DNA of 64,000 nucleotides. Source: a virus. The position numbers and the translations under genes are program-made. Shown in pieces: positions 527 through 11,195 of this stretch. Position 1 is the first letter of the stretch. The number at the start of each line of letters is the position of its first letter. A model generated the notes under the pieces. It was not told where the DNA came from. It worked only from the letters and a program-made list of their open reading frames with translations, and made no database searches. Location: positions 1 through 64,000 of IMG/VR virus record IMGVR_UViG_3300025096_003663. One strand, written 5' to 3'.

Positions 527-1048
527 ATGAAAGTAATAATAGAAAAAACCGAAATCGATGAAATCATTAGCGAGATGATAGAAGAAGGCTTTTTTGATCG
601 GTTCCGTGCCGGCAAAGCTGGTAGAGAAGCCGCCAAAGCGGCAAAGCCTGGCGTTGGTCAGCGGCTTGGGCGAGGATGGGATGCAATAATGGGCAAAAAT
701 TTAGAAGATTTGCCTGATGCTGAGATCGAGAAACTAACAGCACAAGCAAAAAGCATAACAGATAGTTATGTGAAGAAGCTAGAAGACTTAGCCGGTGATT
801 TGGAGTCTGATGCTGCCAAGATGGGCTTAGACACTGATTCCGTCGATAAAGCAATCAAGCCAATAAAGAATGCTTCAGAGTTTCTCAAGATTCTAGGGGT
901 AAAGCGGGCAATGTCGGCAGCAGAGGCATCTGCCTTGACAGAGCCGGAAAATATAGCATCAGGCGAAACAGAATCCGGCGAGGATATTTCTGCCGAAGAG
1001 CAAGCTGCCAGGAAGCGATACGGCTTAGACGAAAAAGAAGGAGAATGA
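527..1048 (+). CDS. Hypothetical protein, 173 aa
   Basis: Begins one base after the previous stop. The N-terminal section MKVIIEKTEIDEIISEMIEE followed by GFF resembles the short amphipathic leader seen on many T4-like phage core or scaffold-associated proteins, but I cannot assign a family. The middle is Ala/Lys/Gly rich (around residues 28-50), followed by a predicted helix (residues 60-95) and an acidic, Ser/Glu-rich tail. No membrane segment or catalytic motif is visible. It sits in a run of small charged proteins ahead of the 942-aa ligase/nucleotidylyltransferase gene, overlapping the end of its neighbour's leader. Function unknown. Confidence 0.6.
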   Translation: MKVIIEKTEIDEIISEMIEEGFFDRFRAGKAGREAAKAAKPGVGQRLGRGWDAIMGKNLEDLPDAEIEKLTAQAKSITDSYVKKLEDLAGDLESDAAKMGLDTDSVDKAIKPIKNASEFLKILGVKRAMSAAEASALTEPENIASGETESGEDISAEEQAARKRYGLDEKEGE

Positions 1049-1383: not shown

Positions 1384-1635
1384 ATGGATTTTCGTCAGAT
1401 GACAAAGAAATTTTTACTTGGTGAATCCTATGATTCACCAAACATTAATAGCTATATCCAGTCCCTTAAAGAGGTGCTGGAAGCCTTAAAACCTTCCTCT
1501 CAATCTGATAAAATGAGAGTAGAGATGGCTCAAAGTCACTTAAGGGAAATAAAGAGAAATAATAGAAGACTTCAAGAAAAAGTTGATCTCTTGGAAGAGA
1601 GAGTAAGAATTTTCGAAGAGGGTAAAAAGGAATAA
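1384..1635 (+). CDS. Small coiled-coil hypothetical protein, 83 aa
   Basis: Starts 3 bases after the previous stop and ends 4 bases before the next start. Residues about 45-80 form a heptad-like, charged coiled coil (for example NRRLQEKVDLLEERVRIFEE) and the N-terminus is a short mixed segment. No catalytic residues are apparent. Gene position between charged small proteins and the 942-aa fusion suggests co-translation with them. Function unknown. Confidence 0.6.
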   Translation: MDFRQMTKKFLLGESYDSPNINSYIQSLKEVLEALKPSSQSDKMRVEMAQSHLREIKRNNRRLQEKVDLLEERVRIFEEGKKE

Positions 1636-1639
1636 GCTT

Positions 1640-4468
1640 ATGGGCGGATTAGCAGGACACATGAGTCATCTGTATGACAATCCAAACCTTTCTTTCTCTA
1701 AGATGAAAGACATTTTTAATAAGGCTACAAGAGGAGAGCTCGTTGGTACAGAAAAGACCGACGGGCAGAACCTTTTCGTATCTTATAGTGTCCGAGATAA
1801 GAAAGCTAAAGCGGCAAGAAATAAGTCTAATATAAAGTCGGGAGGATTAGATCCTGCCGGACTTGCCCAAAAGTTTGCCGGTAGAGGAAACTTAGAAAGA
1901 GCTTTCGTAGACGGCTTTGCTGCTTTTGAGCAGGCTGTACAATCTATGCCGATTGAGCTACAGATAGATCTTTTTGGACCCGATGCTAATATTTTCTATA
2001 ACGCCGAAATAATGGATCCGAGAAGCCCAAATGTCGTCAACTACGATACTAAAAATTTGGTAATCCATCGAGTGGGTCATCTTGCTCTCGATAAAGAGAC
2101 TGAAGAGACTGTACCAGTAGAATCGGAAGAGCTAGTATCTCAGCTCGAACAGGCATTGGGAGCTATTCAGGACACAAAAGAGGAAGAGGATTACGGAGTT
2201 CAGGTTAATGCTATAAAAAACCTAGAAAAGTTTACTAGCGACAGCCCTACAATGAAAATCACAAAAAGGCTCGATGATCTAATGAGATCCGCTGGTCTTT
2301 CCGACGAGAATGTTGTCGGCGATTATATTATTAAAAAAGTTAGTGAAAGAATCAACGAAAGCTTTCCGGCAGCCAATAAAGATATTAAAGATATGATCCT
2401 ACAGAGGACACTTGGTCAAAAGGGAGCTAATCTAACTAAGATACTTGCTAAAATCCCGAAAGAGGAAGCTGAATATCGAGATTCAGTCCGACAGTTTATT
2501 GCTGGTAGCAAAGACTTGATTAAGGAAATAATTTATCCACTAGAAGATATAGTCCACGACTTTTCAGTCTTAGCATTAAGCGGCTTGGAGAGTGTATTCA
2601 TCTTAGATAATCAGAAAGAAGTAGAGAGACTTAGGAAAGAAGTCGCCACTGCTATTAGATCCATAGAAGGATCGGGTTCTGATGAAGCTATGTCCATCTT
2701 GAGCAAGCAGTTACAAAAACTTAAATCAATTGATAATGTCTCGACAGCCTCAGAAGGCTTTGTTTTCGATTATGATGGGAAGACTTATAAATTTACTGGC
2801 AACTTTGCCCCGATTAATCAGCTTCTCGGATTATTCCGCTTTGGGCGAGGAGATATTCCCCCAATGAAGAAAATAGATGAAGAGCAAGAACAGTTCAACA
2901 GAATAGTTGCTGTTTTTCCCGGCAAGTTCAAGCCTCCTCATTCTGGGCATCTTGGAGCTGTCGAAGAGATTTATCCGACAACAGAAGAAATGTATATTTT
3001 AATTTCTCCAAGAGAGGATAAAGGTGTTACTGCTGAAGCCTCGAAGAAAATTTGGGATATATACCTAAACAGATACGGTCTTGCCGGCAAAGCACAAGCT
3101 TTTGTATCAACCCAGCTATTCCCCGCTGCTCCAAGTCCCGTACAGGCAACCTATGAGTTTATAGAAGAGTTTGTAGAGCCGGATGATAAAGTTATTTTGG
3201 TGCTGGGTGTGAAAGATATCAAAGATGGTAGATATGCCGGAGCAGTTAGAGTCGGTCAGAATAGAGGCATAGATGTAGAGATACAGCCCATACCTCCTCA
3301 AGCCGGCGGAATAAGTGCTAGCGGAGACATGAAGCCGGCTATGGAGGCGGGCGATGAAGAGAAGTTTAAATCCCTCCTTCCCGAGAAACTAAGCCCAGAA
3401 GACAAAGATAGAATATGGAAACTAGTTAAGGGAGAGGTATCGGAAATCTCTACTGCTTCTGCCGTAGTAGGCTATGCCGATGATAAATCCGAAGATGAAA
3501 AAGAGGAAAGTTATATGATAACGAGAGAAGATATTGTTTATGAAGAAAAAGTAAGAGAAGTTATTCGTAAGAAGATCGAAAACAGAGCTTCGGTTCTTAG
3601 CGAGACTAAAGAAGAAGATACCAGTGTGATTTATGTCTCCAAGGTTCAGAAAGAGAAAATAGACAACTTTCGACTAGAACACAAACTTAGAGAGTGTATT
3701 CATAAGTTGCTGCTGCAGGAAAAAGAAGATCTTCCTCCTCACAGAAGCACCGGCATCAATGTTTTACAAGTTCTGCTAAGGACAGTTGTTTCCTCCCTCA
3801 AGACTGGCTACAAATCCCTTACCACCGACATTGAACAAAGAAATTCTTTTCGAAGCCACATCATTAATGCTGTCGTTAATTCTTTGGCTCCAATCGAACT
3901 AGACGATGAAGCAGGACAAGAGCTAAAAGAGATCGATGTAGACATAAAGGATGATATGCCAGCAGACGCCGATAAATTCATTGACGTCGGCGACGAAGAT
4001 TTTGCTTTCGATGAAGAGGAAAAAGAATCATTCCAGACGCTGCCGGGCGAAGATTTGACCGGGCGAAATGTAGCAATGCATGCATATGATAGAATTGAGA
4101 AGCAGATAGTAGATGCATACGCCGATCTAGATAACCAGCAAGATCAGAAAATGTTTTATGATTATCTTATTGCCAACCTAAAACTTTATTTTGATAGGTT
4201 TGAAGATCAATTGCAAGATGAGCTTCCAGAACCTTCCAATGCTGCTTATGAAGAAGAGAAAGAAGACGAAGAAATGGGGGCAGCGATGGGCGAGACACCA
4301 TCAGACGAAGGAATTGAAGAGCTTGAAGAAATATATTCAGATAAGCAAAGAAAATGGGCTTGTGCTCAAACCAAGGGAAGCAGAAAAAGCTTCAAAGGTA
4401 AACCCTCTCTTTCTCCGAAAGAAGCAGAGGAAATGTGCTCCGCCGACATTGAAAAACCAAAAAAATGA
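1640..4468 (+). CDS. ATP-dependent ligase-like plus HxGH nucleotidylyltransferase fusion, 942 aa
   Basis: Residues 1 to about 415 look like a covalent nucleotidyltransferase (DNA/RNA ligase superfamily): KTDG at 39-42 fits motif I with Lys39 as the AMP-accepting lysine, the Glu of FYNAEIMD (Glu123) fits motif III, and EGFVF at 372-376 fits motif IV, followed by a KFTG that could be motif V. Residues about 418-590 form a second domain, a Rossmann-type cytidylyl/adenylyltransferase with the signature FPGKFKPPHSGH; the HxGH is H434-H437. The C-terminal 350 residues are acidic and helical and end in a Cys-containing basic tail (KQRKWACAQTKGSRKSFKGK) of a type I associate with other T4-like marine phage proteins. 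Substrates are unknown: RNA repair, NAD-type metabolism or modification of a cofactor are all open. Domain calls are by motif; the combination is unusual. Confidence 0.7.
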   Translation: MGGLAGHMSHLYDNPNLSFSKMKDIFNKATRGELVGTEKTDGQNLFVSYSVRDKKAKAARNKSNIKSGGLDPAGLAQKFAGRGNLERAFVDGFAAFEQAVQSMPIELQIDLFGPDANIFYNAEIMDPRSPNVVNYDTKNLVIHRVGHLALDKETEETVPVESEELVSQLEQALGAIQDTKEEEDYGVQVNAIKNLEKFTSDSPTMKITKRLDDLMRSAGLSDENVVGDYIIKKVSERINESFPAANKDIKDMILQRTLGQKGANLTKILAKIPKEEAEYRDSVRQFIAGSKDLIKEIIYPLEDIVHDFSVLALSGLESVFILDNQKEVERLRKEVATAIRSIEGSGSDEAMSILSKQLQKLKSIDNVSTASEGFVFDYDGKTYKFTGNFAPINQLLGLFRFGRGDIPPMKKIDEEQEQFNRIVAVFPGKFKPPHSGHLGAVEEIYPTTEEMYILISPREDKGVTAEASKKIWDIYLNRYGLAGKAQAFVSTQLFPAAPSPVQATYEFIEEFVEPDDKVILVLGVKDIKDGRYAGAVRVGQNRGIDVEIQPIPPQAGGISASGDMKPAMEAGDEEKFKSLLPEKLSPEDKDRIWKLVKGEVSEISTASAVVGYADDKSEDEKEESYMITREDIVYEEKVREVIRKKIENRASVLSETKEEDTSVIYVSKVQKEKIDNFRLEHKLRECIHKLLLQEKEDLPPHRSTGINVLQVLLRTVVSSLKTGYKSLTTDIEQRNSFRSHIINAVVNSLAPIELDDEAGQELKEIDVDIKDDMPADADKFIDVGDEDFAFDEEEKESFQTLPGEDLTGRNVAMHAYDRIEKQIVDAYADLDNQQDQKMFYDYLIANLKLYFDRFEDQLQDELPEPSNAAYEEEKEDEEMGAAMGETPSDEGIEELEEIYSDKQRKWACAQTKGSRKSFKGKPSLSPKEAEEMCSADIEKPKK

Positions 4469-4505: not shown

Positions 4506-4551
4506 AGTGAGGTGGTTGGGCAGGAGGCATCCAACAGCAGCATGGTGAGTG

Positions 4552-4926
4552 ATGAGTTGGAATAAGAAAAAGAGAGTATCAGGAAAAAATAAATATTATA
4601 GTATTAGAAGTAAATTAAAAAGAGAAAATAAAATTACTTCTGATTTTGAGATAATGTTAAATAATTTAACTTTAGAGGATATAATAGCTCTTAAGTTAGA
4701 ATATTCAATTAATGTTTCCGGCACACCTGTATATGGTCTGCAGTTAGCTAAATCATTGAGATATGTTTGTAAAGAGGCTCTCTATAAGCTAGCACTAAGC
4801 GCCACAAGGTCTAAAAACTCTGCTGCTCGGTTTCTCGGAGTTAGCGAGAACGATTTCCGGCAAGAACTTAAAAGAATGAGAATAGAGAGCTTCTTCTTGG
4901 ATGAAGAAGATGAAAAGAAAGCATAA
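4552..4926 (+). CDS. Small basic protein with Fis-like C-terminal helix-turn-helix
   Basis: About 124 residues from the ATG at 4552; a GTG at 4549 is directly in front and no strong ribosome site decides between them. The N-terminus is Lys/Arg rich. The C-terminal segment AARFLGVSENDFRQELKRM closely matches the Fis/NtrC-type recognition helix pattern (AA..LGv....l...lk), indicating DNA binding. The last 26 bases overlap the following nucleotidylyltransferase gene, so the two are translationally coupled. A regulator or a nucleoid-type protein is likely; the target is unknown. It follows the putative promoter at 4477-4505. Confidence 0.6.
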   Translation: MSWNKKKRVSGKNKYYSIRSKLKRENKITSDFEIMLNNLTLEDIIALKLEYSINVSGTPVYGLQLAKSLRYVCKEALYKLALSATRSKNSAARFLGVSENDFRQELKRMRIESFFLDEEDEKKA

Positions 4927-5413
4927 GATAGTAGCTATTAGCGGCGGTTTTGATCCAATACACATTGGGCACCTTAAGCTTATCCAAGAAGCATCCAAAT
5001 ACGGCAAGGTTGTTATCATTTTGAATTCTGATAGCTGGCTCGTAAGAAAAAAAGGCTATTATTTTATGACTCATGAGGAGAGAGCCCAACTTCTAGAAGG
5101 AATGAAGAAAGTTCACAAAGTCGTGCTTTCTCTGGATCAGGATGACACAGTTTGTGAAACACTTGAGAAGATAAAACCTGATTACTTTGCCAATGGCGGC
5201 ACAATAAACAAAAATACAATATCTAAAAAAGAAATAGATACTTGTAAAAAACTTAATATTGAAATGATTTGGAGCATCGGCGGCTCTAAAATCCAAAGCA
5301 GTTCGGAACTAGTTGATAAACTCAAGATTCCCAAGTCAAACAAGAAGACGGAACTGGAAGCTTTTAAAGACATAATCGATTCCTTCAATAGTGTAAATTT
5401 TCTCAAGAAATAG
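4901..5413 (+). CDS. Cytidylyltransferase-like (HxGH) nucleotidyltransferase, 170 aa
   Basis: A small single-domain Rossmann nucleotidyltransferase of the RfaE2/TagD/CoaD type. The signature GGFDPIHIGHLKLI lies near residues 14-27, and a SSSELVDKL segment near the C-terminus resembles the second substrate-binding region of the family. Family members transfer CMP or AMP from a nucleotide to a phosphorylated sugar or alcohol; which one here cannot be told. An in-frame ATG at 4910 is an alternative start. It overlaps the HTH gene and precedes the tRNA. It is the second HxGH domain in the window, the other being inside the 942-aa protein, but the two are different in length and architecture. Confidence 0.75.
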   Translation: MKKMKRKHKIVAISGGFDPIHIGHLKLIQEASKYGKVVIILNSDSWLVRKKGYYFMTHEERAQLLEGMKKVHKVVLSLDQDDTVCETLEKIKPDYFANGGTINKNTISKKEIDTCKKLNIEMIWSIGGSKIQSSSELVDKLKIPKSNKKTELEAFKDIIDSFNSVNFLKK

Positions 5414-5551: not shown

Positions 5552-7213
5552 ATGAGAATAAAAGAATTCTGTGAATTGTTGAGAAAGTCTTCTTACAGCT
5601 TCGAACACGAACAAATTTGCCGGCTACGGGAAGATTTAAACGATAAAATGGATCCGAAAAGCTGGCTTTCTCTGTTTGAAAATTATTTTAAAAATTATAC
5701 CAACGAAAAGGAAGTGGAATATATTATGGAAGGAAAAGTAATCAACGAAAACACCTCTCAATTTTTAAATTTACTATCGGAAAATTTTTCGACGAAAATA
5801 CAATTATTATTAGAGAGTAGAGAGGACAAAACATCTCCGAGTAATAGGCTTGACTTCTTAAGGGAAACAAAACATGTAAGAGAGGGAAATTGGAAGATTA
5901 ACAAAATACCAGATAAGATTTTAGACAGGAGAGTAGAAATCACTGGACCTGTTGATCGAAAAATGATAATCAATGCCCTAAACTCAGGTGCAAATGTTTT
6001 TATGGCGGATTTTGAAGATTCAAACTCCCCAACTTGGGAGAACTGTGTCAATGGTCAGGTTAATCTATATGATGCTATTCGAAAAAATATTGATTTTACA
6101 GCAGACAACGGAAAAGAGTATAAATTAAATAAAAGCCCAGCAACTCTCTTTGTAAGACCAAGAGGGCTACATCTACAAGAAAAAAACTTTTTAAATTATG
6201 ATGGTGTTCCAATCCGAGCGGCACTCTTTGATTATGGAGTATTCGTATCTCTAAACATAAGAGAAATGGTTGATAGAGGAGAACCGCCTTGCTTTTACCT
6301 ACCAAAACTAGAAAGTTATTTAGAGGCGAGAGTCTGGGCAGAGATATTTGCTTTTACAGAAGAATATTTTAGTATCCAGAAAGGAACAATAAAAGCCACA
6401 GTATTAGTTGAGACTCTGCCACTAGCATTTCAAATGGATGAAGTGCTTTATGAGCTGAGAGAGTATTCTGCTGGACTTAATTGTGGAAGATGGGATTATA
6501 TTTTCAGTTTTATGAAAAACCTATCATCAGAAACATTACCAGACAGAGACCAGCTAACCATGTCAAGGCACTTTATGAGCTCATACACAAATCTCCTAGT
6601 TCATACCTGTCATAAGAGAGGCAGCCATGCTATGGGCGGAATGGCAGCACAAATACCAATTAAGAATAATCCAGAGGCAAACGAAGCAGCCTTAGAAAAA
6701 GTCAAAGAAGATAAAGAAAGAGAAGTGATAAATGGACACGACGGCACATGGGTTGCCCACCCAGGATTAATAGCTATAGCGAAAGAAGTTTTTGATTTAC
6801 ATATGAAAGGGAAAAACCAAATAGATAGGGAAGTGGAAACTTCCGTGACCCGAGAAGATCTTCTTAAGATACCGGATGGTGATTGTACAGAAGAATGCTT
6901 TCGAAAAAATATTAATATTGGATTTACATATCTGAACAGTTGGCTCGATGGCAAGGGGTGTGTGCCCATAAACAATCTTATGGAGGATGCCGCGACAGCA
7001 GAGATATCAAGAACTCAGCTTTGGCAATGGGTAAAAAATAAAGCAGAGTTAACAAATGGGAAAATATGTGGGGAAGAATACTTCACTAAAATATTAAATG
7101 AAGAGATAGAAGATTCCCACGAGAATTATTTAGCTAAGAAAATCTTTAAGAATTTATGTTTATCTGATAATCTAGATGAGTTCTTAACAACAGTCTGTTA
7201 CAAACATTTATAG
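5552..7213 (+). CDS. aceB: Malate synthase (AceB/MSA type)
   Basis: Condenses glyoxylate with acetyl-CoA to give malate and CoA, the second step of the glyoxylate bypass. Similarity to the A-type enzyme runs nearly end to end: RRVEITGPVDRKMIINAL and FMADFEDS in the barrel, RPRG at 202-205 (active-site Arg), VETLPLAFQMDE and CGRWDYIFS (Mg-binding Glu and Asp), NGHDGTWVAHPG with catalytic-base Asp397, and LMEDAATAEISRTQLWQW in the C-terminal plug. 553 residues against about 533 for the E. coli enzyme. The first 58 residues do not look like the family; an in-frame ATG at 5726 with AAGGAAGTGGA upstream would give a 495-residue protein closer to the family start. The gene begins 16 bases after the tRNA and sits 9 bases before aceA. 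No frameshift or missing catalytic residue seen. Confidence 0.95.
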   Translation: MRIKEFCELLRKSSYSFEHEQICRLREDLNDKMDPKSWLSLFENYFKNYTNEKEVEYIMEGKVINENTSQFLNLLSENFSTKIQLLLESREDKTSPSNRLDFLRETKHVREGNWKINKIPDKILDRRVEITGPVDRKMIINALNSGANVFMADFEDSNSPTWENCVNGQVNLYDAIRKNIDFTADNGKEYKLNKSPATLFVRPRGLHLQEKNFLNYDGVPIRAALFDYGVFVSLNIREMVDRGEPPCFYLPKLESYLEARVWAEIFAFTEEYFSIQKGTIKATVLVETLPLAFQMDEVLYELREYSAGLNCGRWDYIFSFMKNLSSETLPDRDQLTMSRHFMSSYTNLLVHTCHKRGSHAMGGMAAQIPIKNNPEANEAALEKVKEDKEREVINGHDGTWVAHPGLIAIAKEVFDLHMKGKNQIDREVETSVTREDLLKIPDGDCTEECFRKNINIGFTYLNSWLDGKGCVPINNLMEDAATAEISRTQLWQWVKNKAELTNGKICGEEYFTKILNEEIEDSHENYLAKKIFKNLCLSDNLDEFLTTVCYKHL

Positions 7214-7222
7214 GAGCAAAAA

Positions 7223-8446
7223 ATGAGCAATGAAATAAAGAGACCATATACCGACGAAGATGTCAAAAAATTGAGAGGTTCCGTAAGAGTGGAACATACT
7301 TTGGCTCGAAACGGGGCAGAAAAGCTAAGGAAGCTTCTCAGCGAGGAGAAATATATCAATGCACTCGGTGCTGTCACCGGTAACCAAGCTGTACAGCAAG
7401 TGAGAGGCGGATTAAAGGCAATATACTGTAGTGGTTGGCAAGTGGCAGCCGACGGAAACTTGGACGGCACTATGTATCCAGACCAAAGTTTATATTCAGC
7501 TAGAAGTGTGCCCTTGGTGGTAAAAAAAATAAATAATGCTCTACAGCGAGCCGATCAGGTAGACTCAGCAGAGGATATATCTGATAAAGATTGGTTTGCC
7601 CCTATCGTAGCCGATGCCGAAGCAGGTTTCGGCGGACCTCTAAATGCTTACGAGCTTATGAAATCTATGATTGAGGCTGGAGCAGCCGGAGTTCATTTCG
7701 AAGATCAACTTTCATCAGCAAAGAAGTGTGGGCATATGGGAGGTAAGGTTCTTATTCCCACCGGTCAGTTTATCAAGACTTTGATTGCCGCCAGATTAGC
7801 ATCAGATGTATCGGATGTTCCGACAGTGTTAGTAGCACGAACTGACGCCGATTCAGCCAAGCTATTAACATCTGATATCGATGAAAGGGATCACCCATTT
7901 ATTCTATCGAAAGAGCGGACGGCAGAGGGTTTCTTCCGGATCAAAGATGGTATAGAACCAGCTATAGCCCGAGCCTTGGCATATGCACCATATGCTGATA
8001 TGATTTGGTGTGAAACATCCAAGCCAGATTTGGAGCAGGCAAAGAAGTTTTCTGAAGCGGTAAAAAAAGAATTTCCGGACAAAATGCTAGCCTACAATTG
8101 TTCTCCCTCGTTCAATTGGAGAAAACATCTTGATGAGAAGACAATAAGAAAATTCCAAAATGAGCTCGGAGCTATGGGATACAAATTTCAGTTTGTTACA
8201 TTAGCAGGATTCCACACTTTGAATAATAGTATGTTTGAGCTTTCTGTAGGATACAAAGATACCGGAATGGAAGCTTATTCTGAACTTCAGGAAAGAGAGT
8301 TTTCCAATGCTTCTCTCGGCTATACTGCCGTCAAGCATCAGCGAGAAGTCGGAGCTGGGTATTTTGATTTAGTATCGAAGACTATCAGCGGCGATGAAGT
8401 ATCGACTTTGGCACTCAAAGAATCCACTGAAGAGGAGCAATTTTAA
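7223..8446 (+). CDS. aceA: Isocitrate lyase
   Basis: Cleaves isocitrate to glyoxylate and succinate, the first step of the glyoxylate bypass. The hallmark KKCGHMGGK is at residues 167-175 with catalytic Cys169. Also present are [10 protein letters not shown] (substrate loop), [12 protein letters not shown] (Mg-binding Asp), [27 protein letters not shown], and NCSPSFNW with [14 protein letters not shown] near the C-terminus. The 407 residues compare with 434 for E. coli AceA, so it is a short but complete form that distinguishes it from methylisocitrate lyase by the KKCGH core and the NCSPSFNW motif. A ribosome site (AGGAGCAAAA) precedes the ATG. The stop overlaps the first base of the next gene. 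Gene order aceB-aceA matches bacterial ace operons, but there is no aceK. Confidence 0.96.
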
Positions 8447-8871: not shown

Positions 8872-9795
8872 CTATTCTCTGATTTTCCATCTCTCGGCTT
8901 CTTCTTCCTCAAGGATATCCCACTCTGGAACTTCTGTTCCCCAAAGGAATACTTTCTCTTCAACAACTATTTGAGGAGTGAAGTCCATGAACACTTTCAC
9001 TTTATGGGGAGTATTACCAGCCATAAGATCTTTTACTTGCTTCAGTGTCGGCGAGATTGTTAGATGGTGAAACCTTGTATACACAGCAGAAACGACACCG
9101 ATGACTTCCATATTCTTATTTAATAAAAGAGAACCAGAACTACCTGGTGCGGCAGGAAGAGAGAATAAGGAGTGCTTTTCTTCTGGAACATTAACAAATT
9201 TGAAGTTGCCGCTGAAATACCCCTTGAACATAGGCGAACCTTCGCTAGAATAAAGGCTAAGTGGCGAAGCGACATTATAAACGATTTCTCCTAAAACTGG
9301 GTCTTCGCCAGAAAGCACGAGAGCTCTAGCTCCTTCAATTTTGCTCACTTGGATTAAACAGGCATCAAACTTTGTTGCCGAAACATATGAGATGGCGGAA
9401 TAGACTCTATTCTTCCGATCAGATACTTTCAAGAAGTGTCTTACATCATCCGGATTCGGCACCTGACCTTTAATAGCCTCAATCAGGCTCGACACATCAC
9501 AGACATGAGCAGCAGTCAATACCACAGTGCTGTCCTTATCTTGCCAGATTATACCCCCAGAGCCGGTATATCCGGTGTAAGCTTTCTTTGTTTGCTTATC
9601 AACGACGACTCCCTCTACGAATACTGTGGAATTGTAAATTCCAGCAAGAGGAAAGTCTTCTCCAACCCCAGTGGTACAAGAAGAGGAGGCACTTAAGCCC
9701 TCGACGGTGCTTTTACTAGCCGTGCAGCTAATAGCCAGAGGAAGAAGTAGAGCGAATATCGATAAATTTTTGAGGTTATTTTTAATGTTAAACAT
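8872..9795 (-). CDS. Trypsin-like serine protease, predicted lipoprotein
   Basis: 307 residues and the only clear gene on the minus strand. The N-terminus is a signal peptide with a hydrophobic core (SIFALLLPLAISC) and a lipobox-like AISC, so Cys24 would be lipidated. The S1-fold catalytic residues are visible: His in VLTAAHVC, Asp in TKFDACLIQ, and Ser in APGSSGSLLL. The product would be anchored in the envelope, facing the periplasm or cell surface. Possible roles are degradation of envelope proteins, superinfection exclusion or help at lysis; these are inference. It is convergent with 8637-8870 and divergent from PhoH, so it needs its own promoter. Confidence 0.8.
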   Translation of the reverse strand: MFNIKNNLKNLSIFALLLPLAISCTASKSTVEGLSASSSCTTGVGEDFPLAGIYNSTVFVEGVVVDKQTKKAYTGYTGSGGIIWQDKDSTVVLTAAHVCDVSSLIEAIKGQVPNPDDVRHFLKVSDRKNRVYSAISYVSATKFDACLIQVSKIEGARALVLSGEDPVLGEIVYNVASPLSLYSSEGSPMFKGYFSGNFKFVNVPEEKHSLFSLPAAPGSSGSLLLNKNMEVIGVVSAVYTRFHHLTISPTLKQVKDLMAGNTPHKVKVFMDFTPQIVVEEKVFLWGTEVPEWDILEEEEAERWKIRE

Positions 9796-9838
9796 AAAGT
9801 ATCTATCTTTGAGAAATACTAAAATACCTGAAAGATAC

Positions 9839-9846
9839 TATTTATC
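9839..9846 (-). promoter_or_regulatory. Candidate T4-type late promoter for the lipoprotein gene
   Basis: On the minus strand the sequence reads GATAAATA, one base from the T4 late consensus TATAAATA, about 43 bases upstream of the minus-strand ATG at 9795. The phage has its own gp55-like sigma factor (25067-25768). No -35 element is expected for that class. Single eight-base match, so weak. Confidence 0.3.
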
Positions 9847-9866
9847 TCTAGATCCACAGGATTTTT

Positions 9867-11195
9867 ATGAATAAAATCACTTATATTCTCGATACAAGTG
9901 TTTATCTACATGACGCAAATGCAATCTATCATTTTGGAGAAAATGATATCATAGTGCCCTTGAAAGTGCTTGAGGAAATAGACAAGCACAAAAAAAGGCA
10001 AGATGGTGTCGGCGCCAATTCTAGAAAAATAATAAGAACATTTGATGCCTTGAGAGAAAAAGGTAATCTCTCTAGGGGTGTTAAAATTGACGAGAACAAG
10101 GGCATACTCAAAACGGTGAGTGTCAACCAAGTAGAAGACTTGCCGCCAGATCTAGATAAAAACATTCCAGATCACATCATCGTCGGCACTGTCCTCAAGG
10201 TATGTGCCTCCGTGGGCAGAGACAACACTGTTCTTGTTACCAGAGATATAAACCTTAGAGTGATAGGCGACTCTCTAGATATTAAAACCGAAGATTTCAA
10301 TCCTGATAAAGTAGTTGAAGACACAGATGAGCTTTTCTCAGGGTTTAAAGAGGTTTCGATAGCTCAGGAAGAGATTGATCAATTTTATTCTGGAGATGAT
10401 TTCGTCTTAGAAGAAAAAGCTTCAGAAAACCTTCAGCCTAATGAGTTCATTATGTTATCATCAAATATAAATGAAAAATCAACAGCCCTCGCGAGATTCG
10501 TTGAAAAGGGCTCTCCGCTCGCTCCGATAAGAAATATAAACAGTAACAACAGCAATGTATGGGGAGTTAGACCAAAAAACAAGGAACAGAGCTATGCACT
10601 AGATTTGTTGCTGGATCCATCTATTCCGATAATAACCCTAGTAGGAAAAGCAGGTTGCGGAAAAACCCTGCTAGCAATTGCAGCGGGACTAGAGCAAACA
10701 ATAGGCGAAAGCAAACATTATGATAGAATGGTGGTGTCCCGTCCGGTTGAGCCAATGGGGAGAGATATAGGCTTCCTCCCAGGCACAATAGAGGAAAAGA
10801 TGGCACCATGGCTAGCACCAATACAAGATAACTTGGAATTCCTAATGGGCAACGAAAAAGAGACACTCGATATGTATATCGAAACAGGTAAGATCCAAGT
10901 TGAAGCGCTAACATATATCAGAGGCAGATCCATAGCAAACTCTTACATAATAATTGATGAAGCTCAGAACTTGACATCTCATGAATTAAAGACTATAATA
11001 ACAAGAGTTGGAGAGGGAACCAAAATAATTCTTACAGGAGATGTCGAACAGATAGATAATGCTTATGTTGATGAGACTTCCAATGGGCTAGCCTATGCTG
11101 TTGAGAAATTTAAGCCCTACAATTTATCTGGACATGTTACCTTATTGACTGGTGAACGATCCCTTGTTGCAACACTAGCATCAAAAATATTATAG
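9867..11195 (+). CDS. phoH: PIN-PhoH protein (PhoH2-type), nuclease plus P-loop ATPase
   Basis: 442 residues with two domains. Residues 1 to about 150 are a PIN-type nuclease domain: ITYILDTSVYLHD carries the first acidic residue (Asp9) and VLVTRDINLRV the later Asp. Residues about 230-440 are the PhoH ATPase with Walker A GKAGCGKT near residue 261 and Walker B YIIIDEAQNL. PhoH2-type proteins are reported to couple RNA unwinding and cleavage; PhoH genes are very common in marine phages, including ones not linked to phosphate stress. A CAGGA lies just upstream of the ATG. It is divergent from the lipoprotein gene. Confidence 0.9.
   Translation: MNKITYILDTSVYLHDANAIYHFGENDIIVPLKVLEEIDKHKKRQDGVGANSRKIIRTFDALREKGNLSRGVKIDENKGILKTVSVNQVEDLPPDLDKNIPDHIIVGTVLKVCASVGRDNTVLVTRDINLRVIGDSLDIKTEDFNPDKVVEDTDELFSGFKEVSIAQEEIDQFYSGDDFVLEEKASENLQPNEFIMLSSNINEKSTALARFVEKGSPLAPIRNINSNNSNVWGVRPKNKEQSYALDLLLDPSIPIITLVGKAGCGKTLLAIAAGLEQTIGESKHYDRMVVSRPVEPMGRDIGFLPGTIEEKMAPWLAPIQDNLEFLMGNEKETLDMYIETGKIQVEALTYIRGRSIANSYIIIDEAQNLTSHELKTIITRVGEGTKIILTGDVEQIDNAYVDETSNGLAYAVEKFKPYNLSGHVTLLTGERSLVATLASKIL

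What the first reader, a model, noticed from the sequence alone, without database searches (positions are those of the whole stretch)
1640..4468. Fusion of ATP-dependent ligase-like domain with HxGH nucleotidylyltransferase
One protein carries KTDG, a motif III Glu and EGFVF, then a separate HxGH Rossmann domain, then an acidic tail. Both halves form nucleotidylated products by different chemistry, which could mean two steps on one substrate, such as cofactor or RNA end processing. The substrate is unknown.
Basis: partly seen in the sequence, partly recalled or inferred. Interest (0 to 1): 0.65.

Follow-up and report, generated by a model that had tools for sequence, protein, structure and literature searches.

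The report
Phage-packaged ligase plus nucleotidyltransferase protein
A marine phage gene joins an RNA/DNA-ligase-type enzyme to an NAD- or CoA-synthesis-type enzyme, and hundreds of related phages keep this pair together, mostly with a sequence mark suggesting it is packed in the virus head and injected into the host, so it may be an overlooked early-infection tool.

Summary
ORF 1640-4468 (942 aa, on an IMG/VR phage contig) has a ligase-type domain (LD, aa 2-401; K39-T-D-G, ARNK, E123, EGFVF, K384) and an HxGH nucleotidyltransferase (NT, aa 420-600; H434/H437). AlphaFold gives pLDDT 93 for LD alone. Foldseek puts NT with NMNAT/PPAT; LD's top PDB hits are ATP-dependent RNA/DNA ligases, with weak E-values. 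Pfam RNA_ligase is the family most LDs match (16 of 59, weakly).

More than 570 IMG/VR stretches encode LD. In 74 of 78 untruncated cases NT is in the same protein, in either order; once it is the next gene. In 63 of 67 LDs with residues upstream, the LD is preceded by [LIV]xE|GG, the cleavage motif of T4-type prohead proteases; 14 others, and the window's, start M-GG. The phage encodes such a protease. LD-first proteins stay in one chain; NT-first ones would be cut in two.

The closest named relatives are cyanophage DUF6267 plus 'cytidyltransferase' (fused in S-PM2d138, adjacent elsewhere); published proteomics found that cytidyltransferase in virions.

Best reading: a capsid-packaged, injected AMP-transfer pair, most likely for RNA-end repair and/or NAD+ supply. 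The substrate is unproven.

The parts
1640..4468 (+). LD-NT-C fusion protein, 942 aa
1643..2842 (+). Ligase-type domain (LD), aa 2-401; motifs I K39TDG, Ia ARNK58-62, III Glu123, IIIa-like IHRVGH142-147, IV EGFVF372-376, V K384; large helical insert between III and IV (about aa 163-361)
   Evidence: alignment A4; model m2172b1a354f4 pLDDT 93.2, pTM 0.90; Foldseek PDB and viral; Pfam RNA_ligase matched by 16 of 59 members
1640..1648 (+). M-GG start; equals the Gly-Gly that follows [LIV]xE in homologues with upstream residues
2897..3439 (+). HxGH nucleotidyltransferase domain (NT type B), aa 420-600; HxGH 434-437; SxTxxR-like element with Arg replaced by Lys (aa 558-565)
   Evidence: phrog_395 E 1.1e-5; Pfam CTP_transf_like 0.029; Foldseek PPAT/NadD prob 1.00; family HMM 4e-47 (the window sequence is in the seed)
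3515..4429 (+). C-terminal acidic/helical module (aa 626-930), encoded as a separate gene in L009 (8923-9759) and L021 (8394-9185); conserved 'STGINxL' and 'KQRxWACA...EMC' segments
1384..1635 (+). Small conserved upstream gene (83 aa) with capsid-targeting-like N-terminus KKFLLGE|S; homologues next to LD genes of LD-first loci
527..1048 (+). 173-aa protein with leader ending MIEE|G, candidate co-packaged internal protein
4549..4926 (+). 125-aa downstream gene conserved in LD-first loci
4901..5413 (+). Separate small HxGH nucleotidyltransferase gene (HldE-like), also present in L007, L010, L020, L027, L029

Best explanation
The protein is a phage early-infection enzyme of a widespread two-domain type: a covalent nucleotidyltransferase of the RNA/DNA-ligase fold (LD) plus an NMNAT/PPAT-like HxGH adenylyltransferase (NT). 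Inferred mechanism: it is made with the head proteins, enters the prohead, is trimmed in most relatives by the T4-gp21-type protease at [LI]xE|GG so that LD begins Gly-Gly, and is ejected with the DNA. In LD-first proteins such as the window's, LD and NT stay in one chain. In NT-first proteins the same cleavage would release NT and LD as two co-packaged polypeptides. In the host, LD self-adenylylates on the KxDG lysine and passes AMP to a 5'-phosphate end, most likely RNA cut by host defence nucleases; NT uses ATP to make a dinucleotide cofactor, most likely NAD+ from NMN. Shown here: the domains, predicted folds and pairing. Supported indirectly: packaging. Inferred only: injection and substrate. 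My estimates: folds 0.9, coupling 0.85, packaging of the family 0.7 (of this leaderless protein 0.5), RNA-end plus NAD role 0.3.
For: Fold: LD model pLDDT 93; PDB top hits Trl1 adenylyltransferase, T4 Rnl1, ASFV DNA ligase (prob up to 0.96), Naegleria RNA ligase; RNA_ligase the commonest Pfam match, 16 of 59, best 4.4e-5; catalytic Lys, Glu and Gly invariant. NT: PPAT/NadD prob 1.00. Coupling: of 84 LD loci 6 are cut at the contig edge without NT; of the other 78, 74 carry NT in the same ORF, 1 in the next gene, 3 not found; orders LD-NT, LD-X-NT, NT-LD and several NT subtypes. Packaging: 63 of 67 LDs with upstream residues follow [LIV]xE|GG and 14 others start M-GG; at 70% identity clustering 22 of 38 clusters are purely [LIV]xE|GG and 12 purely M-GG. 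In six proteins a similar ~13-residue leader precedes both NT and LD (L038, L051, L057, L060, L069, L072). Own contig encodes a gp21-like protease (phrog_207, 2.7e-56), terminase and portal. T4 gp21 cuts after L/I-X-E and T4 internal proteins are ejected (PMC9026906). Mel-JY01 capsid protein has LISE|A at residue 60, its likely scaffold nine such sites. Terminase lies downstream in 39 of the loci L037-L085. Cyanophage cytidyltransferase T4-GC190, adjacent to DUF6267 T4-GC71 in P-HM1, was found in S-SM1 virions (PMC3037559), and a cytidylyltransferase in S-CREM2 virions (PMC10665884).
Against: The window protein has no leader, so its own packaging rests on homology and neighbours. No proteomics of this phage exists, and the S-CREM2 authors note that co-purification is possible. 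Foldseek PDB E-values for LD are weak (best 8e-3) with TM about 0.25. The GxHH change in NT type A and the Arg-to-Lys change in the window's SxTxxR element could lower NT activity. In NT-first proteins the predicted cleavage separates the domains, so one-substrate channelling is not general. Nothing tested here identifies the substrate. The LD-DUF6267 link is structural only: hhalign is not significant.
Confidence: 0.5

Rival explanations
1. NAD+ economy module: NT is an NMNAT that rebuilds NAD+ on entry against NAD-depleting defences, and LD uses NAD+ (or returns NMN) as its adenylate source, so the two recycle NMN and NAD+.
For: Sub-threshold NT matches are mostly NMN/NaMN adenylyltransferases; the chemistry couples directly (established knowledge of NAD+-dependent ligases); phage NMNATs are discussed for NAD+ supply (PMC10665884).
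Against: No domain-Ia-like NAD+-binding module was recognised; structural neighbours are ATP-dependent ligases; PPAT is an equally good structural match for NT.
Confidence: 0.25
2. Late-expressed cytosolic enzymes encoded beside head genes but not packaged; the [LI]xE-GG junction is a conserved linker rather than a cleavage site.
For: No direct proteomics for this family; the aligned DUF6267 proteins have no such leader; some LD proteins have no leader.
Against: The motif is very constant across diverged leaders, a similar leader precedes NT in several proteins, and leaderless members begin at exactly the same Gly-Gly; cyanophage cytidyltransferase is found in virions.
Confidence: 0.25
3. Injected DNA-end or nick-sealing ligase acting on the phage genome itself at entry.
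For: Structural hits include DNA ligases (ASFV, human Lig1, T4).
Against: Pfam matches favour RNA ligase and the two best PDB hits are RNA/tRNA ligases; it gives no role for NT.
Confidence: 0.15
4. LD is a catalytically dead structural or core domain of the head.
For: Head-gene synteny and association with core-like peptides.
Against: Active-site Lys, Asp, Gly and Glu invariant in 59 sequences, with the equivalent Lys, Asp, Gly and Glu invariant in the aligned DUF6267 proteins.
Confidence: 0.07

Closest known systems
Pfam DUF6267 (PF19782, phrog_455) plus cyanophage 'cytidyltransferase' (phrog_395/3041; T4-GC71 plus T4-GC190), e.g. Synechococcus phage S-PM2 S-PM2d138
   Same: Same LD-NT architecture, fused in S-PM2d138 and adjacent in P-HM1 and many cyanophages; collinear motifs HxxHLxD, KxDG, PNxxxY, xxH, EGxV, K; a 591-aa S-PM2 protein matched by Foldseek E 8e-6, prob 1.0
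   Different: No significant sequence-profile match; Asp instead of Glu at motif III; no [LI]xE|GG leader seen; DUF6267 has no assigned function and no paper in the held library names it
T4 internal head proteins (Alt, IPI-III) with capsid-targeting sequence
   Same: Short N-terminal peptide ending in L/I-x-E before the mature enzyme (in most relatives), gp21-type protease in the genome, head-gene neighbourhood
   Different: Ligase-type and NMNAT-type domains rather than ADP-ribosyltransferase or anti-restriction proteins; the motif also lies inside longer proteins between domains; the window protein has no leader
T4 RNA ligase 1, tRNA ligase Trl1 adenylyltransferase domain, Naegleria Rnl
   Same: Nucleotidyltransferase motifs and predicted fold
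   Different: Sequence similarity at the limit; large helical insert between motifs III and IV; N-terminal GGxxGHMxHLYD element; phage-head context
NMNAT / NadD / phosphopantetheine adenylyltransferase (CoaD)
   Same: HxGH Rossmann nucleotidyltransferase fold
   Different: Every NCBIfam match is below its cut-off, so the substrate class cannot be assigned; the SxTxxR arginine is Lys in the window
Polyvalent proteins (Iyer et al. 2017, PMC5512222)
   Same: Multi-domain phage proteins predicted to be injected; some LD relatives carry ParB-like or other extra domains
   Different: In the passages found in that paper, RNA ligases are mentioned only in the 2H-domain context and 'adenylyltransferase' does not occur; LD-NT proteins are tied to T4-type head processing

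Membership tests
Covalent nucleotidyltransferase (ATP-dependent ligase) superfamily | KxDG lysine, motifs Ia, III, IV, V in order | tested here: met
   invariant or nearly invariant in 59 sequences; 0 of 20,000 shuffles
Covalent nucleotidyltransferase (ATP-dependent ligase) superfamily | ligase fold | tested here: inconclusive
   all credible top Foldseek hits are ligases but best E 8e-3 and TM about 0.25; Pfam RNA_ligase weakly in 16 of 59
Covalent nucleotidyltransferase (ATP-dependent ligase) superfamily | Lys-AMP formation and end sealing | not testable with these tools
   needs biochemistry
HxGH nucleotidyltransferase superfamily | HxGH motif and Rossmann fold | tested here: met
   H434/H437; Foldseek prob 1.00 to PPAT/NadD
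NMNAT (NAD synthesis) | match to an NMNAT family model above cut-off | tested here: not met
   NCBIfam matches sub-threshold
NMNAT (NAD synthesis) | conserved SxTxxR arginine | tested here: not met
   Lys in the window and L006; Arg in most other type-B domains
T4-type capsid-targeted internal proteins | leader ending in L/I-x-E at the mature N-terminus | tested here: not met
   absent from the window protein, which starts M-GG; present in 63 of 67 homologues that have upstream residues, so the family claim stands but this member is not filed there
T4-type capsid-targeted internal proteins | gp21-type protease encoded by the same phage | tested here: met
   phrog_207 E 2.7e-56 in L095
T4-type capsid-targeted internal proteins | presence in virion and injection | not testable with these tools
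   only published proteomics of distant cyanophage relatives
DUF6267 (PF19782) | Pfam match above cut-off | tested here: not met
   no DUF6267 match for the window protein nor among the families listed for A4
DUF6267 (PF19782) | same fold and motif order | tested here: met
   Foldseek to the 591-aa S-PM2 protein E 8e-6, prob 1.0; collinear motifs; hhalign not significant

The most novel reading that the evidence does not exclude
A widespread class of T4-like phages packages a ligase-type adenylyltransferase together with an NMNAT-like partner in the capsid, often as one precursor with its own capsid-targeting peptides that the prohead protease cuts, and injects them as a pre-made RNA-repair and/or NAD+-recycling kit; DUF6267 plus 'cytidyltransferase' of marine cyanophages is the same system.
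Probability: 0.4. Interest if true: 0.8.

Novelty: new variant of a known kind. Interest (0 to 1): 0.58.

Why it matters
It proposes a fold and chemistry for a family of unknown function (DUF6267) found with 'cytidyltransferase' in many T4-like cyanophages and for hundreds of LD proteins in uncultured phages. It suggests that phages inject ready-made end-repair and cofactor enzymes, which would act before any phage gene is expressed and so meet host tRNA-cutting or NAD-depleting defences first. The predicted cleavage site makes this testable by routine virion mass spectrometry.

Tried and rejected
Single-sequence search of viral contigs found no relatives. PDB sequence-profile searches with the LD and DUF6267 alignments gave only chance matches. 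hhalign LD versus DUF6267 was not significant even with 77 sequences; a forced alignment was collinear but cannot count as statistics. Foldseek of the two-domain model returned only NT matches in the displayed list, so LD was modelled alone. Coronavirus spike hits (prob about 0.04) were discarded as noise. Literature searches for an RNA-ligase/NMNAT fusion, for a packaged, ejected RNA ligase and for DUF6267 returned nothing in the held library. Considered and dropped: an upstream leader for the window ORF (the extra open frame is 11 codons with no leader-like sequence).

Full report
WHAT IS THERE. The window is part of an 81,247-base IMG/VR virus record. ORF 1640-4468 encodes 942 aa. Residues 2-401 carry ligase motifs (K39TDG, ARNK58-62, Glu123, EGFVF372-376, K384) and residues 420-600 an HxGH nucleotidyltransferase (H434, H437). 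KxDG alone is common by chance (34% of shuffles), but the ordered set and the HxGH motif each occur in 0 of 20,000 shuffles. Single-sequence family searches see little: Pfam CTP_transf_like 0.029, PHROG 395 'cytidyltransferase' 1.1e-5, nothing for the LD.

FOLDS. An alignment of 48 relatives gave a two-domain model of pLDDT 89; Foldseek assigns the second domain to the PPAT/NadD/NMNAT group (prob 1.00). The LD modelled alone reaches pLDDT 93, pTM 0.90. Its best PDB matches are the Candida tRNA-ligase adenylyltransferase, T4 Rnl1, ASFV DNA ligase and Naegleria RNA ligase. E-values are weak (8e-3 and worse) and TM is low, plausibly because of a helical insert of about 200 residues between motifs III and IV. 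Sequence agrees: RNA_ligase (PF09414) is the Pfam family matched by most members, 16 of 59, best 4.4e-5; the match seen in full, L032, scored 21.1 bits against a cut-off of 27. Active-site residues are invariant. I take a ligase-type fold as very likely but not proven.

RELATIVES AND COUPLING. Over 84 loci (window, three phage records, 80 IMG/VR), 74 have NT in the same ORF, one (LR756500) in the next gene, six are cut off by the contig end, and three untruncated ones lack it: L034, L036 and L063, the last with a kinase-like N-terminus. Several loci are near-duplicates of each other. Orders differ: LD-NT (window and most of L006-L033), LD-500 aa-NT (L035, L047), NT-LD (Mel-JY01 and most of L038-L085). 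Several NT subtypes occur: canonical HxGH, a TxGH form, and a GxHH form in most of the 41 type-A proteins. The LD search did not use NT, so the association is informative.

PROCESSING AND PACKAGING. Among 81 LDs with a recognisable Gly-Gly start, 47 of 49 internal and 16 of 18 short-leader ones are preceded by [LIV]xE; 14 begin M-GG. Met removal before Gly would give the same N-terminus; this is inference. At 70% identity, 22 of 38 clusters are purely [LIV]xE|GG and 12 purely M-GG. T4 gp21 cuts after L/I-X-E (PMC9026906). The own contig has a gp21-like protease plus T4-type terminase and portal. In Mel-JY01 the capsid protein carries LISE|A at residue 60 and the likely scaffold nine such sites, as expected for gp21-type processing. 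In six NT-LD proteins a similar ~13-residue leader containing a terminal Glu precedes both domains. Terminase follows the LD gene in 39 of the loci L037-L085. Neighbouring genes in the LD-first loci, including 1384-1635 in the window, carry leaders such as KKFLLGE|S or WKEFILNE|G.

A consequence needs care. In LD-first proteins the motif lies before LD only, so LD and NT stay joined. In NT-first proteins the same cut would separate NT from LD. Coupling is therefore by co-packaging as well as by fusion, and strict substrate channelling is not a general property.

CLOSEST KNOWN. Foldseek against viral models matched a 591-aa S-PM2 protein (E 8e-6, prob 1.0). By length and annotation I identify it as S-PM2d138, which is Pfam DUF6267 (1.6e-111) followed by a CTP_transf_like domain: the same architecture. 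In P-HM1 DUF6267 (T4-GC71) and cytidyltransferase (T4-GC190) are overlapping genes. Of 77 further DUF6267 loci, 3 are fused to and 37 followed within 1.5 kb by a strict HxGH/TxGH motif; 10 more end at a contig edge. GC190 was detected in S-SM1 virions (PMC3037559) and a cytidylyltransferase in S-CREM2 virions (PMC10665884), with the authors' caution about co-purification. Profile comparison of LD with DUF6267 is not significant, so homology rests on fold and motif order.

MECHANISM. I commit to an injected AMP-transfer pair: LD forms Lys-AMP and acts on nucleic-acid 5' ends, most likely RNA; NT makes a dinucleotide cofactor, most likely NAD+. Steps shown: domains, predicted folds, pairing. Supported indirectly: processing and packaging. 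Inferred: injection, substrates, counter-defence role. The window protein itself lacks a leader; its packaging, if real, must use its C-terminal module or partners.

VERDICT. Observation confirmed; interpretation partly supported; a new variant of the T4-type packaged enzyme theme, with interest 0.58.

Noticed in passing
5552-8446: The phage contig encodes malate synthase (5552-7213) and isocitrate lyase (7223-8446), a complete glyoxylate shunt, just downstream of the LD-NT cluster; L034 also has an isocitrate-lyase-like ORF (9538-10776) downstream of its LD gene. Glyoxylate-shunt terms co-occur with viral auxiliary metabolic genes in PMC4053976 and PMC5332604 (not read).
   Followed up: partly
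9867-11195: PIN domain plus PhoH-like ATPase in one protein.
   Followed up: no
8872-9795: Trypsin-like serine protease domain (Pfam Trypsin_2 3.5e-10) on the minus strand, next to a plus-strand PhoH gene.
   Followed up: no
1-525: Partial ORF with a long internal repeat (KEWAEEDALDRSLRARRKKWDAQNKADDNKWYNKLNPFREGE occurs twice).
   Followed up: no
1045-1380: Ala/Lys/Glu-rich 111-aa histone-like protein next to the LD gene; similar proteins precede LD in L006 and L021.
   Followed up: no
L063:5083-7224: LD fused to a protein-kinase-like N-terminal region instead of NT, upstream of baseplate-like genes.
   Followed up: no
L005:9128-11851: Flavobacterium phage immuto protein combines a Pol-beta-like nucleotidyltransferase region, an NMNAT-like domain and metalloprotease-like HExxH segments.
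   Followed up: no
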